From Microcella alkalica (lineage in GTDB: Bacteria; Actinomycetota; Actinomycetes; Actinomycetales; Microbacteriaceae): DNA of 64,000 nucleotides. The stretch covers positions 248,001-312,000 of the forward strand of contig NZ_JABUKC010000002.1 in assembly GCF_014595885.1 (NCBI RefSeq), given 5' to 3'. The position numbers and the translations under genes are program-made. The notes under the pieces are model-generated. The model did no database searches, was not told where the DNA came from, and worked only from the letters and a program-made list of their open reading frames with translations. Shown here one piece after another: positions 3,956 through 49,803 of this stretch (positions are counted from its first letter, which is position 1; every line of letters starts with the position of its first letter).

Positions 3956-4053
3956 GTCAACAACTCAGGACGAACTCGTGCTGGCACCGCGCGGACCCGC
4001 CCGCGAGCGGGAGTGGCGCGTGCGCCCAGGCCCGATCGTCCTGAGTTGTCGAC
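3956..4053. repeat. Dispersed 18-bp motif, convergent module 1
   Basis: A forward copy at 3956-3974 (GTCAACAACTCAGGACGAA, one mismatch to GTCGAC) and a reverse copy at 4035-4053, start-to-start distance 79, spacer 60 bases. The spacer is not conserved with other modules. It lies downstream of holA in a convergent gap. Confidence 0.9.
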
Positions 4054-4139
4054 ACCAGCGGGGCGGGCAGCCCTCGCGCTCTCGTCGGGTGCTGCTCGTG
4101 CGGACGGGGCCCGACGCCGTGCAACCCACCCACTCGCGC

Positions 4140-4237
4140 GTCGACAACTCAGGACGATCCCCAGCCCTTCGCGCGAGCATCCGCCACCGGTCGGTGAGCC
4201 GGGCCGCGCGCGAACGCGATCGTCCTGAGTTGTCGAC
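4140..4237. repeat. Dispersed 18-bp motif, convergent module 2
   Basis: A forward copy at 4140-4158 and a reverse copy at 4219-4237, both full matches. The start-to-start distance is again 79. The gap to module 1 (105) does not follow the about 11.25-bp spacing rule seen inside modules. Confidence 0.9.
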
Positions 4238-4313
4238 ACGCTCACCGCGCGCCCAGCGCTCCCGCAGGGCAGCGCGGCGCGGCCCGCCCACGAGCCCGCG
4301 CACGCCTGAACGA

Positions 4314-4350
4314 CGAAGCCCCGCCCGCCAGGAGGCGGAGCGGGGCTTCG
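4314..4350 (-). terminator. Rho-independent-like terminator of rpsT
   Basis: A perfect 11-bp inverted repeat, CGAAGCCCCGC at 4314-4324 and GCGGGGCTTCG at 4340-4350, with an inner CCGCC/GGCGG extension. It starts 46 bases past the rpsT stop. No long T tract follows, as is common in high-GC actinobacteria. Confidence 0.8.
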
Positions 4351-4396
4351 AGCGGCGCGGCCGCGCGGGAGGCGCGCGCCGCGAGAGCCGGGATGC

Positions 4397-4657
4397 TTAG
4401 AGCGCGGCGACCTTCTTGGCGATCGCCGACTTGCGGTTGGCGGCCTGGTTCTTGTGGATGACGCCCTTGCTCACGGCCTTGTCGAGCTTCTTGGTGGCGA
4501 CGACGAGCGCCTCCGTCGCGGCGGCCTTGTCGCCCGCGGCGATGGCCTCGCGCGTGCGGCGCACGGCGGTCTTGAGCTCGCTCTTGACGGCCTTGTTGCG
4601 CTCCTGCGCCTTGAGGTTGGTCTTGATGCGCTTGATCTGCGACTTGATGTTCGCCAT
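4397..4657 (-). CDS. rpsT: 30S ribosomal protein S20
   Basis: An 86-residue, lysine- and alanine-rich helical protein starting MANIKSQIKRIKTN, diagnostic of S20. It binds 16S rRNA at the bottom of the 30S subunit. The ATG at 4657 is preceded by an AAGAAAG purine run. It is a single-gene unit on the minus strand with its own promoter about 130 bases upstream and a strong hairpin downstream. The long leader could allow S20 autoregulation, known in other bacteria, but I see no specific structure. Confidence 0.97.
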   Translation of the reverse strand: MANIKSQIKRIKTNLKAQERNKAVKSELKTAVRRTREAIAAGDKAAATEALVVATKKLDKAVSKGVIHKNQAANRKSAIAKKVAAL

Positions 4658-4796
4658 GACTGTCTTTCTTCGAGTGGAACGGTGTGAGTGTGGCGGCCGG
4701 GGTGGGGGTGCCTGGGCGGTGCCCGGTGGCGAACTGATCCCAGCCGCAATCCGTGTCGGAGGAGAGAGGGCTTCCTGACACGCAAGCCAACAGAGA

Positions 4797-4802
4797 ACAT
4801 TA
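4797..4802 (-). promoter_or_regulatory. rpsT -10 box (TAATGT, extended TG)
   Basis: On the minus strand the sequence reads TGG then TAATGT, an extended -10. It would place the transcript start about 130 bases before the rpsT ATG. Pattern-based. Confidence 0.5.
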
Positions 4803-4960
4803 CCAGTGATCGCGCCGGTTCGGGCGAGGCGCGGCGCCGGCGGGGCGAGGCGGCGGATGCTCGCCGCGGGGCTCCCGCCCGCGCGAGCCGCGCGCTACGG
4901 TGACGACGGGCCGCACGGCCTCGCCCGCGCACCGCCCGACCCCGCTCGACTCCCGCCCCG

Positions 4961-47615: not shown

Positions 47616-47656
47616 CCGCGCGCCCCGCCCCCGCGCGCTCGAGCCGACGCCTGCGC

Positions 47657-47743
47657 GTCGACAATTCAGGACGAAGTGGATGCTCGGCGCGTGTCGGGCG
47701 CCCCAGGGCGGCGTGTCGCCGGCCATGGTCCTGAGTTGTCGAC
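47657..47743. repeat. Dispersed 18-bp motif, convergent module 11
   Basis: Forward variant at 47657 (AATTCAGG) and reverse at 47725 (ATGGTCC variant), distance 68. Located in the gap after glyS. Confidence 0.9.
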
Positions 47744-47860
47744 GCGCGCACCCGTCCGCCCGCTGAGCCGCTCCTCCCCAGGCGCGGTGGTCGCCCGCCA
47801 CGGCCCCCATCCACCCGCCGAGCGGGCGACCCGCGCCCCGCGCGACGCACACTGGCTCGC

Positions 47861-48883
47861 GTGTTCGAGCAGCTCATCGCCGAGGTCATCCGCGCCGGGG
47901 AAGCCGCCGGCCGCGCCCACCTGGTTGCGCGCGGCCATCCCGATCGGCTGCTCACGGCGGCCGTCCGCGCCGGCGCCCTTCGGCGCGCTCGCCGCGGCTG
48001 GTACACCGTCTGGCCGGCTGACGATCCGCGCTTCCGAGCCCTCCGGCTCGGCGGCCGCCTCACCGGCCTGACCGCCATCATCGCGCTCGGCGGCTGGGTG
48101 CTCCATAGGCCGAAACGGATGCACGTCGCCGTGCCCGTCAACGCCTCGCGCCTGCGGTGCCCGCGCCGGCGACGCGTGGCGTTCTCGCGCTCGAGCGAGC
48201 GCCCGCGCGTGACCCTGCACTGGACGCGCGAGCGCCACGATCGCGACACCTGCACCGGCATCGTCCCCCTGCTCGAGGCGCTCGAGGTCGTCTGCCGCAT
48301 GGAGCCCGTCGAGGACGCCATCGCCGCGATCGACTGGGCGCGTCGCGCCGGGCGAGCGGATGCCCTCGACCTCGCCGCGCTCGCCTCGCGCCTCCCGGCC
48401 GACCGGCGGCACCTCGTCGCCGCCTCGAGCGGGTCGTGCCACTCGCTGCCCGAGTCGCTCGCGCGCACGCGCCTGCGCGCCCTCGGCCTGCGCGTGCGCG
48501 AGCAGGTGATGCTGCCCGAGAGTCCGAGCCCGCTCGACCTCCTGGTCGAGGAGTCCGTCGCCGTCGAGGTCGACGGCGAGCAGTTCCACCGCGAGCGCTT
48601 CGAGGTCGACCGCGCGAAAGACCTCGCGGCGACCCGGTGCGGGTTCCACGCCCTGCGACCTGCGGCCCGGCACGTGTTCGAGGAGTGGCCCGCCGTGCTC
48701 GAGGCGATCAGGGTGGCGCTGTCGGCGCGGGGCGTGCGTCTGCCCGTCGCTGCGAGCGACCCGCGCCGAGCATCCGCCGACAATTCAGGACCAACGAAAC
48801 GGTGCCGACGCCGCAGCCGCGCCGTTCCGCGGTCGTCGAGCCCGCGACCCCGCCGCCCGCCGCCGATGGTCCTGAATTGTTGA
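47861..48883 (+). CDS. DUF559/Vsr-like endonuclease-domain protein with AbiEi-type N terminus
   Basis: 340 residues. The N-terminal about 60 residues (LLTAAVRAGALRRARRGWYTVWPADD) look like the winged helix of AbiEi-type antitoxins. The C-terminal region PLDLLVEESVAVEVDGEQFH..RFEVDRAKDLAATRCGFHALR is a PD-(D/E)XK fold of the DUF559/very-short-patch type. The target is unknown. The last about 35 residues are read through motif module 12 and end at a TGA inside the reverse copy, so this tail is repeat-derived. GTG start; a CACACT hexamer lies seven bases upstream. Confidence 0.7.
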   Translation: MFEQLIAEVIRAGEAAGRAHLVARGHPDRLLTAAVRAGALRRARRGWYTVWPADDPRFRALRLGGRLTGLTAIIALGGWVLHRPKRMHVAVPVNASRLRCPRRRRVAFSRSSERPRVTLHWTRERHDRDTCTGIVPLLEALEVVCRMEPVEDAIAAIDWARRAGRADALDLAALASRLPADRRHLVAASSGSCHSLPESLARTRLRALGLRVREQVMLPESPSPLDLLVEESVAVEVDGEQFHRERFEVDRAKDLAATRCGFHALRPAARHVFEEWPAVLEAIRVALSARGVRLPVAASDPRRASADNSGPTKRCRRRSRAVPRSSSPRPRRPPPMVLNC

Positions 48884-48884
48884 C
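48776..48884. repeat. Dispersed 18-bp motif, module 12, translated as a protein tail
   Basis: Forward at 48776 and reverse at 48866, distance 90. Both copies share the same two variants (AATTCAGG and GGACCA), unlike most pairs. Confidence 0.88.
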
Positions 48885-48927
48885 GCGCCCCCGGGAATAG
48901 GCCGCGCGCACCCGCGTTGACCCCAGC

Positions 48928-49611
48928 GTGAGCAACTCCAGCGCCCCCATCGACGTGCAGATCTGGTCAGACGTGCAGTGCCCCTGGTGCTACATCGGCA
49001 AGCGGAAGTTCGAGGCCGCGGTGGCCGAGTTCCAGCAGCACGGCGGCGACGTAAAGGTGACCTACCGCAGCTTCGAGCTCGCCCCCGACACGCCCGTCGA
49101 CTTCGAGGGCAGCCCGATCGACTACCTGAGTCAGCGCAAGGGCATCAGCCCCGAGCAGGCGCAGCAGATGGTCGACCGCGTCTCGAGCATCGCGGCGAGC
49201 GTCGGTCTCGAGTACCACTACGACCGCATCCACCAGACCAACACGGTGCTCGCGCACGAGCTGCTGCACTTCGCGAAGGTGCACGGCAAGCAGGTCGAGC
49301 TGAAGGAGCGCCTGCTGCGCGCCTACTTCACCGAGGGCCGCCACATCGGTCGCGCCGACGAGCTGGCCGAGCTTGCCGGCGAGGTCGGGCTGGACCGCGA
49401 CGCCGCCGCGCAGGCGCTGGCCGAGCACACGCACCTGCCCGAGGTGAAGGCCGACATGGCGCAGGCGGTCGCCTACGGCATCCAGGGTGTGCCGTTCTTC
49501 GTCATCGAGTCGAAGTACGGCATCTCGGGCGCGCAGGAGTCGGCGACCTTCCTCGCCGCGCTGCAGCAGGCCGCGGGCGAGCGCGACACCGTCGGGGCCG
49601 ACGCCTCATGA
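48928..49611 (+). CDS. DsbA family oxidoreductase (FrnE-like)
   Basis: 227 residues. The redox motif CPWC is at 18-21 (SDVQCPWCYIGKRKFE). The helical insertion and the cis-proline segment GVPFFVIESKYGISGAQ match FrnE-type cytoplasmic dithiol isomerases/oxidoreductases. No signal peptide. GTG start at 48928. It overlaps a 38-codon ORF by ATGA. Confidence 0.88.
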   Translation: MSNSSAPIDVQIWSDVQCPWCYIGKRKFEAAVAEFQQHGGDVKVTYRSFELAPDTPVDFEGSPIDYLSQRKGISPEQAQQMVDRVSSIAASVGLEYHYDRIHQTNTVLAHELLHFAKVHGKQVELKERLLRAYFTEGRHIGRADELAELAGEVGLDRDAAAQALAEHTHLPEVKADMAQAVAYGIQGVPFFVIESKYGISGAQESATFLAALQQAAGERDTVGADAS

Positions 49612-49724
49612 CCGCGGATGCTCAGCCGCAGCCCTTCGCGATGCTCGGCGACCCCGCCGCCGCGGCGTGCGAGGGCGACGCCTGCCTGATCCCGCCCACC
49701 GTGGCGTCGACAACTCAGGACTAG
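49608..49724 (+). CDS. Small ORF coupled to the DsbA-like gene
   Basis: 38 residues, starting MTADAQPQPFAMLGDPAAAACEG and ending in VASTTQD. A CxxxxC pair (CEGDAC) is the only striking feature. The ATG overlaps the upstream stop, so translation is probably coupled. The last seven residues come from motif copy 49706, with the TAG stop right behind it. It may be a real small redox-associated protein, judged from position only. Confidence 0.5.
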   Translation: MTADAQPQPFAMLGDPAAAACEGDACLIPPTVASTTQD

Positions 49725-49803
49725 CCGCCCGGGCCCAGCGCGAGCGCCGCGCAACCACGGCGCACGCCCGCGTGGCGGCGGCCGTTCGTCCTGAGTTGTC
49801 GAC
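49706..49803. repeat. Dispersed 18-bp motif, convergent module 13
   Basis: Forward at 49706 (GGACTA variant, supplying the stop of the small ORF) and reverse at 49785, distance 79. Confidence 0.92.

What the first reader, a model, noticed from the sequence alone, without database searches (positions are those of the whole stretch)
3956..49803. A new dispersed 18-bp motif in convergent modules
GTCGACAAYTCAGGACKA (both strands) occurs 33 times by my count: 17 forward and 16 reverse, including a few degenerate copies. They group into 13 modules and one lone copy. Within every module all forward copies precede all reverse copies; I find no module in the opposite order. Most modules are at gene ends, one is between divergent genes (21246-21387), and several are inside coding sequence. 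Spacers are unrelated. No transposase or cas gene is present. A conserved site with a strict polarity rule suggests a protein-binding or DNA-architecture element with no description known to me.
Basis: seen in the sequence. Interest (0 to 1): 0.88.

Follow-up and report, generated by a model that had tools for sequence, protein, structure and literature searches.

The report
Nuclease gene with dispersed paired sites
A short DNA motif that comes in facing pairs at set helical distances appears to belong to a nearby, uncharacterised DNA-cutting protein whose gene it brackets, a repeat-plus-enzyme pairing that we did not find described.

Summary
In detail: 32 copies within 3 mismatches (0.1 expected), 13 modules, forward before reverse in each. 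All 35 whole-genome copies lie in 69 kb.

It encodes an AbiEi-like DNA-binding part and a Vsr-like nuclease domain. Homologues are bracketed by their own, different facing pairs in 19 of 76 loci, against 0 of 2280 shuffles and 32 of 6000 random intervals. One Microcella species without modules lacks this gene at this place. In another genus the predicted sites cluster around the gene; Agromyces soli is an exception.

Arms change together between species, even inside nadB, while interiors drift. Arm spacing is quantised by about 11 bp, which fits binding to double-stranded DNA with looping.

It works like REP/RAYT (REPIN) systems but fails their tests: no Y1 transposase in any of 14 genomes, no REP-type hairpin. 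Pairing of gene and sites is well supported; binding, cutting and dispersal by this protein are inferred.

The parts
47861..48883 (+). Nuclease gene: AbiEi-like N-terminal two thirds, Vsr-like C-terminal domain; its 3' end contains a forward arm
   Evidence: coordinates from my own simple gene caller
47657..47743 (.). Module upstream of the nuclease gene (1 F, 1 R)
48776..48884 (.). Module at the 3' end of the nuclease gene (1 F, 1 R)
3956..4053 (.). Module between convergent holA-like and rpsT genes (1 F, 1 R)
4140..4237 (.). Second module between the same genes (1 F, 1 R)
17805..18001 (.). Module between convergent genes (3 F, 2 R); no module at this place in G390
21246..21387 (.). Module between divergent genes (1 F, 2 R)
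35450..35546 (.). Module after leuA (1 F, 1 R)
35604..35751 (.). Second module after leuA (1 F, 2 R)
40647..40811 (.). Module inside nadB, 5' part (2 F, 1 degenerate R)
41808..42176 (.). Wide module inside nadB (1 F, 1 R, 351 bp between starts); arm type switched in place between species
44281..44388 (.). Module over the 3' end of the class-V aminotransferase gene (1 F, 1 R)
45209..45396 (.). Module from the recO 3' end to just before the called uppS start (1 F, 1 R, 170 bp between starts, same spacing in G074 and G390)
49706..49803 (.). Module between convergent DSBA-like and YbaK-like genes (1 F, 1 R)
45749..45766 (+). Lone degenerate forward copy inside uppS; may be a coding coincidence

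Best explanation
The 18-bp copies are binding arms of the protein encoded at window 47861-48883, or of a complex that contains it. Its AbiEi-like winged-helix part would bind one arm (core AAYTCAGGA in this lineage). Two arms facing each other on the same helical face, about 5 to 9 turns apart, would be bridged by two subunits into a small loop, which places the Vsr-like nuclease domains on the arms or on the DNA between them. The gene with its two bracketing modules is the full unit; modules without the gene are its dispersed satellites, often within about 100 kb of it. It thus works like a REP/RAYT (REPIN) system built from an unrelated enzyme. Shown: facing pairs, 11-bp phasing, bracketing by different arms in different lineages, clustering around the gene in most genomes measured, one case of co-absence, concerted arm change. 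Inferred: that this protein binds the arms, that it nicks or cuts, and that this disperses or maintains the modules.
For: The nuclease family is the only family next to modules in four genera; the next families reach two (212 modules). Modules lie on both sides of it in 6 of the 12 members found, covering Microcella, Agromyces, Microbacterium and Plantibacter. De novo test: 19 of 76 homologue loci share a facing 9-base pair on both flanks (15 of 55 in the family, 4 of 21 outside), against 0 of 2280 shuffles and 32 of 6000 random intervals. Paralogues in one genome carry different arms: three in G076, two each in G048 and G074. Sites within 100 kb of the gene: 35 of 35 in G000, 28 of 30 in G118, 27 of 33 in G048, 31 of 46 in G235, with 1.6 to 3.6 expected; 5 of 8 in G111 (counted by hand). 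Microcella G310 has neither the gene at this place nor a facing pair. The model resembles AbiEi antitoxin (6y8q, Foldseek E 1.1e-4), and AbiEi is reported to bind inverted repeats (PMC3985639, passages). The nuclease domain matches 3hrl by sequence profile (E 3.1e-6). Protein and arm similarity correlate (Mantel r 0.455, n 31, 0 of 2000 permutations). Phasing: R 0.92 near 11.2 bp.
Against: No binding or cutting was tested. 57 of 76 homologue loci did not pass the exact test, among them the window's own locus L177, whose two modules differ in arm bases, so the test misses some. Agromyces soli has 66 core sites genome-wide and only 4 within 100 kb of the one nuclease gene known to me, 3.5 expected. 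15 of 46 sites in G235 are farther than 100 kb. Co-absence rests on one species, and the rest of G310 was not searched for homologues. Interiors of dispersed modules are mostly unrelated, so copying of whole modules is not seen; no target-site duplication was seen by eye at the two gain/loss places. The Foldseek match of the nuclease part to 3r3p and 3hrl has E above 0.1 (prob 0.89-0.97), and MTES_1575 scores stay below Pfam's cut-off in 6 of 6 proteins. The Mantel r falls to 0.20 for pairs below 50% identity, without a permutation test. L255 and L263 among the 19 may be other inverted repeats.
Confidence: 0.7

Rival explanations
1. Host chromosome-architecture sites, for example a terminus system like MatP/matS, with the nuclease gene only a neighbour.
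For: In Microcella the cluster lies near the point opposite dnaA: about 0.48 to 0.53 of the circle in G340, G137 and G366 (by hand). Arms are kept over long times, even inside nadB.
Against: Sites surround the nuclease gene also in G118 and G048, are spread over the genome in Agromyces soli, and no facing pair is found in G310, whose gene order is otherwise the same. Distance to the dif-like site differs between G366 (about 70-111 kb for the sites) and G000 (about 250-317 kb). Position against dif was not measured in G118 or G048.
Confidence: 0.1
2. The protein is a regulator: arms are operators of an AbiEi-like repressor that has gained a nuclease domain, and the dispersed modules are its regulon.
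For: AbiEi binds two inverted repeats and represses its own promoter (PMC3985639, passages); a module lies upstream of the gene; some modules lie between divergent genes.
Against: By my rough gene calls most modules lie between convergent or same-strand genes: in Microcella 53 convergent, 41 tandem, 25 in-gene, 7 divergent of 126 (with some repeated loci). The second bracketing module lies at the 3' end. Housekeeping neighbours are shared because of position.
Confidence: 0.08
3. RNA hairpins or transcription terminators formed by pairing of the two arms.
For: The arms are inverted repeats, and many modules follow stop codons closely.
Against: At one place a separate hairpin precedes the module and is present in G390, which has no module there (by eye). 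Same-strand arms are also spaced near multiples of 11 bp (R 0.73, n 29). Base identity just inside the arms does not match between F and R by eye (lineages mixed). No Rfam family lies on a module at gathering thresholds.
Confidence: 0.04
4. REP/REPIN elements spread by a RAYT elsewhere in the genome.
For: Doublets with preferred spacing, enzyme gene bracketed by the repeat, extragenic bias: all as reported for REPINs and RAYTs (PMC3116915, PMC2817692, passages).
Against: PF01797 has no match in any of 14 module-bearing genomes; the control found it in 5 of 14 well-known genomes. Arms have no GTAG head followed by a hairpin (sequence).
Confidence: 0.02
5. Ordinary MITEs: remnants of a transposon with terminal inverted repeats.
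For: A place with a module in G000 and G074 but not in G390; bracketing modules with alike interiors in six of 19 loci at z above 4.
Against: Interiors are unrelated between copies with near-identical arms in one genome; arms switch type in place inside nadB; lengths are quantised; no transposase domain was found among the window genes scanned.
Confidence: 0.06

Closest known systems
REP / REPIN elements with RAYT (TnpA-REP) transposases
   Same: A single-gene enzyme bracketed by the repeat it goes with, dispersed inverted doublets at preferred spacing with little-conserved interiors, lineage-specific repeats (PMC2817692, PMC3116915, passages)
   Different: No Y1/HuH enzyme; arms carry no GTAG-headed hairpin; phasing and same-strand spacing point to double-stranded sites; sites often clustered around the gene
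AbiEi antitoxin of the AbiE type IV toxin-antitoxin system
   Same: Fold of the N-terminal two thirds; binds inverted repeats with an 11-bp conserved part (PMC3985639, passages)
   Different: Fused to a nuclease domain; neighbours are glyS and a DSBA-like gene, no AbiEii-like toxin gene; sites are many, wide apart and dispersed
Vsr-like and EDxHD nucleases (Vsr, 3hrl, homing endonuclease I-Bth0305I)
   Same: Nuclease domain by profile match to 3hrl, weak fold match to 3r3p, conserved E198, D226, E236, D238, H243, D250 in 10 of 10 sequences
   Different: Joined to an AbiEi-like part and to dispersed phased arm pairs; no intron host seen
MITEs
   Same: Short, non-coding, facing terminal arms, dispersed
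   Different: Interiors not shared, arms change in concert in place, no DDE transposase seen in the window

Membership tests
REP/RAYT (REPIN) system | Y1 (HuH) transposase, Pfam PF01797 | tested here: not met
   0 of 14 module-bearing genomes; control positive in 5 of 14 known genomes
REP/RAYT (REPIN) system | Enzyme gene flanked by two inverted repeats | tested here: met
   Both sides in 6 of 12 members; 19 of 76 homologue loci
REP/RAYT (REPIN) system | Each repeat is a small hairpin with a GTAG-type head | tested here: not met
   Arm sequences of all lineages, read by eye; only GTCGAC in one type is a 6-base palindrome
MITE | Copies share their interior | tested here: not met
   Interiors unrelated within G048 and G118; exception: bracketing pairs in some loci
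MITE | Target-site duplication | tested here: inconclusive
   None seen by eye at two gain/loss places
AbiE toxin-antitoxin | AbiEi fold | tested here: met
   6y8q E 1.1e-4, TM 0.54 by target; PF13338 below cut-off in 2 of 6 proteins, absent in 4
AbiE toxin-antitoxin | Adjacent AbiEii nucleotidyltransferase toxin gene | tested here: not met
   Neighbouring genes in the window are glyS and a DSBA-like gene
Vsr-like / EDxHD nuclease | Catalytic residues of the fold | tested here: met
   Conserved E, D, E/D, H, D in 10 of 10; the assignment of these to the EDxHD motif is recalled; activity not tested
Terminus system (MatP/matS-like) | Site position set by the terminus | tested here: inconclusive
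   Near the ori antipode in Microcella, but sites follow the nuclease gene in G118 and G048; dif not located there
CRISPR array | Interiors match phages or plasmids | tested here: inconclusive
   One two-module stretch had no phage match; others not searched

The most novel reading that the evidence does not exclude
A nuclease that rewrites short words in place: because arms turn over together while the DNA between them does not, and because the enzyme domain is related to the very-short-patch repair nuclease, nicking at an arm followed by very short patch conversion from another arm could homogenise and spread 15-18 bp arms, mostly near the gene, without moving the DNA between them. This would be a new way for a selfish or domesticated DNA element to persist.
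Probability: 0.2. Interest if true: 0.95.

Novelty: categorically new. Interest (0 to 1): 0.85.

Why it matters
Homologues were found in 79 of 120 sampled family genomes, one to seven copies each, and in 39 of 197 class genomes, 30 of them outside the family; I found no described function. If the pairing is right, the DNA target of many of them can be read from their own flanks, and there is a repeat-plus-enzyme system independent of RAYTs. It also makes testable how a genome keeps tens of near-identical short words, even inside nadB, while everything between them drifts.

Tried and rejected
Terminus or architecture idea: pursued first because the cluster lies near the dnaA antipode in Microcella; set back. 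RNA hairpin idea: see rivals. Captured-spacer idea: one stretch, phages only, no match. Phage or plasmid origin: no tblastn match of the window nuclease among plasmid or phage records at E 1e-5; the pair pattern had no match in viral contigs. NCBIfam gave no useful match. G295 holds tandem forward-rich arms between ligA- and mnmA-like genes; not resolved. A small separate paper search on terminus proteins was of no use.

Details of the bracketing test: 76 of 76 loci held for it were tested (55 family, 21 outside). The first version with 10-base words and wider flanks gave 11 of 30 and 4 of 20 (controls 27 of 4000 intervals and 0 of 1000 shuffles). L187 and L190 passed then but not and are not counted in the 19. 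The 20 loci were picked by me from the list of further copies. In G534's genus mate G543 and in G525 the G534 arm has no match.
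Full report
WHAT IS THERE. The motif is real: 32 copies with at most 3 mismatches against 0.1 expected, in 13 modules with forward copies before reverse copies in each. In the whole genome 35 copies with at most 2 mismatches lie in C2:251956-320663, none elsewhere, and the reversed-pattern control gives none. The genus is taken as Microcella, because same-genus genomes G390 and G074 have contigs of the same length as records of M. alkalica and Yonghaparkia sp. Root332.

FAMILY-WIDE FORM. The exact pair (core, 54-84 bases, reversed core) was found in 21 of 398 family genomes, among them 9 of 10 Microcella. 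A scan of named genomes stopped at 117 stretches; the 80 loci listed are from Microcella, Microbacterium, Plantibacter, Agromyces, Glaciihabitans and unclassified relatives. The core ACAAYTCAGGA is shared by construction; the outer bases are lineage-specific: GTCRAC in one Microcella group, CTCCAC with a following G in another, GTTCAC in Microbacterium and Plantibacter, CTCACAC with AACATCTGG in Agromyces.

PHASING. Among 240 distinct modules the distance takes only the values 54-56, 64-67, 75-79, 87-89 and 98-99 in the range 30-100. The best period is 11.2 bp, R 0.92. A subset of 45 modules from regions fetched by coordinate, not by the gapped pattern, gives R 0.92 at 11.0 to 11.3, against 0.50 for the 99.9% level of random distances. 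Same-strand neighbours are mostly near 21, 33, 44 and 55 bp (R 0.73 at 11, n 29). A repeat of about 11 bp is what looping of double-stranded DNA in living cells would give (recalled, not tested).

THE GENE. Clustering of genes next to 212 modules gave one family present in four genera, the protein of window 47861-48883; the next families reach two genera. Modules lie on both sides in 6 of its 12 members, in Microcella (three), Agromyces soli, Microbacterium RH59 and Plantibacter. Pfam finds DUF559 and MTES_1575 in the C-terminal part: DUF559 reaches its cut-off in 3 of 6 proteins, MTES_1575 in none. An AlphaFold2 model (mean pLDDT 84) matches AbiEi antitoxin (E 1.1e-4) and Rv2827c (E 8.8e-4), the only two matches at E 0.001 or better; Vsr-like 3hrl and the I-Bth0305I catalytic domain 3r3p follow at E above 0.1 with high probability. 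By sequence profile 3hrl is found at E 3.1e-6. AbiEi is reported to bind two inverted repeats, 11 bp conserved within 23 bp (PMC3985639, passages).

PREDICTION AND TEST. If gene and arms belong together, homologues elsewhere should be bracketed by their own facing pairs. Homologues were found in 79 of 120 family genomes and 39 of 197 class genomes, 30 of these outside the family. Of 76 loci, 19 share an exact 9-base facing pair on both flanks (15 of 55 family, 4 of 21 outside), against 0 of 2280 shuffles and 32 of 6000 random intervals in loci that themselves hold modules. The arms differ widely: GTCGGAAACTCAGGC, GTTCATAAAACAGGAG, GCATAACTCCTGCA, CTTCCGAAATGCAGGA, GATCGTACTGACCCGT. The two flanking spans agree within 1 bp in 14 of 19. 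Paralogues in one genome have different arms (G076 three, G048 two; G074 two). Protein and arm similarity correlate (Mantel r 0.455, n 31, 0 of 2000 permutations; r 0.20 for pairs below 50% identity, not permuted). 57 loci did not pass; the window's own locus is one of them, because its two modules differ in arm bases.

CLUSTERING. The arm predicted from the flanks was searched in three genomes. G118 has 30 sites and G048 33; 28 and 27 lie within 100 kb of the gene, against 1.6 and 2.3 expected. G111 has 8, of which 5 lie within 100 kb (counted by hand). Agromyces soli is an exception: 4 of 66, 3.5 expected. G303 has 18 core sites over its genome; its nuclease gene was not located. In G534, outside the family, 7 sites were found, four of them the two bracketing modules; its genus mate G543 has none of this arm.

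CO-ABSENCE. Microcella G310 has no exact pair in its genome. In the fetched 200 kb around the place, holA to dnaG are present in the same order, but between glyS and the DSBA-like gene there are 34 bases and no nuclease gene; no facing pair and one single 8-base core match are seen. The bases after the glyS stop resemble those after the last arm in the window (by eye), as for an empty place or a clean loss. The rest of G310 was not searched for homologues. This is one case.

EVOLUTION OF ARMS. Orthologous modules keep arms while interiors mostly diverge. Inside nadB the reverse arm of the wide module stands in the same alignment columns in 10 of 10 sequences, as GTCRACAAYTCAGGAC in G000, G074, G390 and G366, GTCGACAACTCAGGAG in G340 and G137, and CTCCACAATTCAGGAG in G235, G275, L044 and L076; its forward arm aligns in 7 of 10. 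In G048 and G118 arms are almost uniform within the genome, end in GGA or GGC by genome, and have unrelated interiors. At one convergent place G390 has no module where G000 and G074 have one. In six of 19 loci the two bracketing interiors are alike at z above 4 (L225, L255, L200, L243, L264, L195), which suggests duplication at some time.

COMPARISON. RAYT genes are reported always flanked by two inverted REPs (PMC2817692, passages) and REPINs are doublets with 71 or 110 bp spacing and less conserved spacers (PMC3116915, passages). The present system has that plan, but PF01797 has no match in any of 14 module-bearing genomes and the arms are not REP hairpins. Paper searches for DUF559, MTES_1575, AbiEi with nuclease terms, REPIN/RAYT, EDxHD, and Microbacteriaceae repeats listed no paper that by title, start of abstract or passages seen ties such nucleases to dispersed repeats. 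Only open-licence papers are held, and few were opened: six, by passages.

VERDICT. The finding is part of a nuclease-plus-site-pair system. Pairing of gene and arms is well supported, binding by this protein is likely, and dispersal or short-patch maintenance are hypotheses. I call it categorically new because the tested defining features of REP/RAYT, MITE and AbiE systems are not all met; a stricter reader could call it a new variant of the REP/RAYT plan.

Noticed in passing
window 63904-63969 (-): Guanidine-III riboswitch match above the gathering score, just upstream of a called 107-aa gene at 63569-63892 (-).
   Followed up: no
window 38537-44353: NrtR-like regulator followed by nadA, nadB, nadC and a class-V aminotransferase gene; nadB carries two modules in its coding sequence.
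   Followed up: partly
G074 C2 about 561060 (in L027): A type-B-like module after leuA in a genome whose scanned modules are otherwise of the first type, possibly a relic.
   Followed up: no
L158-L170 (G235): In the second Microcella group a third conserved word, CGACACGCCG, sits about 21 bases from one arm in many modules (by eye).
   Followed up: no
L171-L176, L051, L052 (Agromyces): In Agromyces one arm of a module is often extended to about 31 bp (CACACAACTCAGGAACATCTGGCAGTTATG).
   Followed up: no
L171:4284-4541 (Agromyces soli): A module with four forward and four reverse copies at 21-32 bp spacing.
   Followed up: no
L163:5092-5472 (G235) and L084:3236-3625: A second, small protein family next to modules that resembles a Vsr-like nuclease fragment by eye.
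   Followed up: no
L035:6300-7640 (G295): Repeated arms of this kind, mostly forward, in tandem between ligA-like and mnmA-like genes.
   Followed up: partly
G340, G137, G366: The cluster lies near the point opposite dnaA, while the dif-like site lies at 0.59, 0.59 and 0.49 of the circle (by hand).
   Followed up: partly
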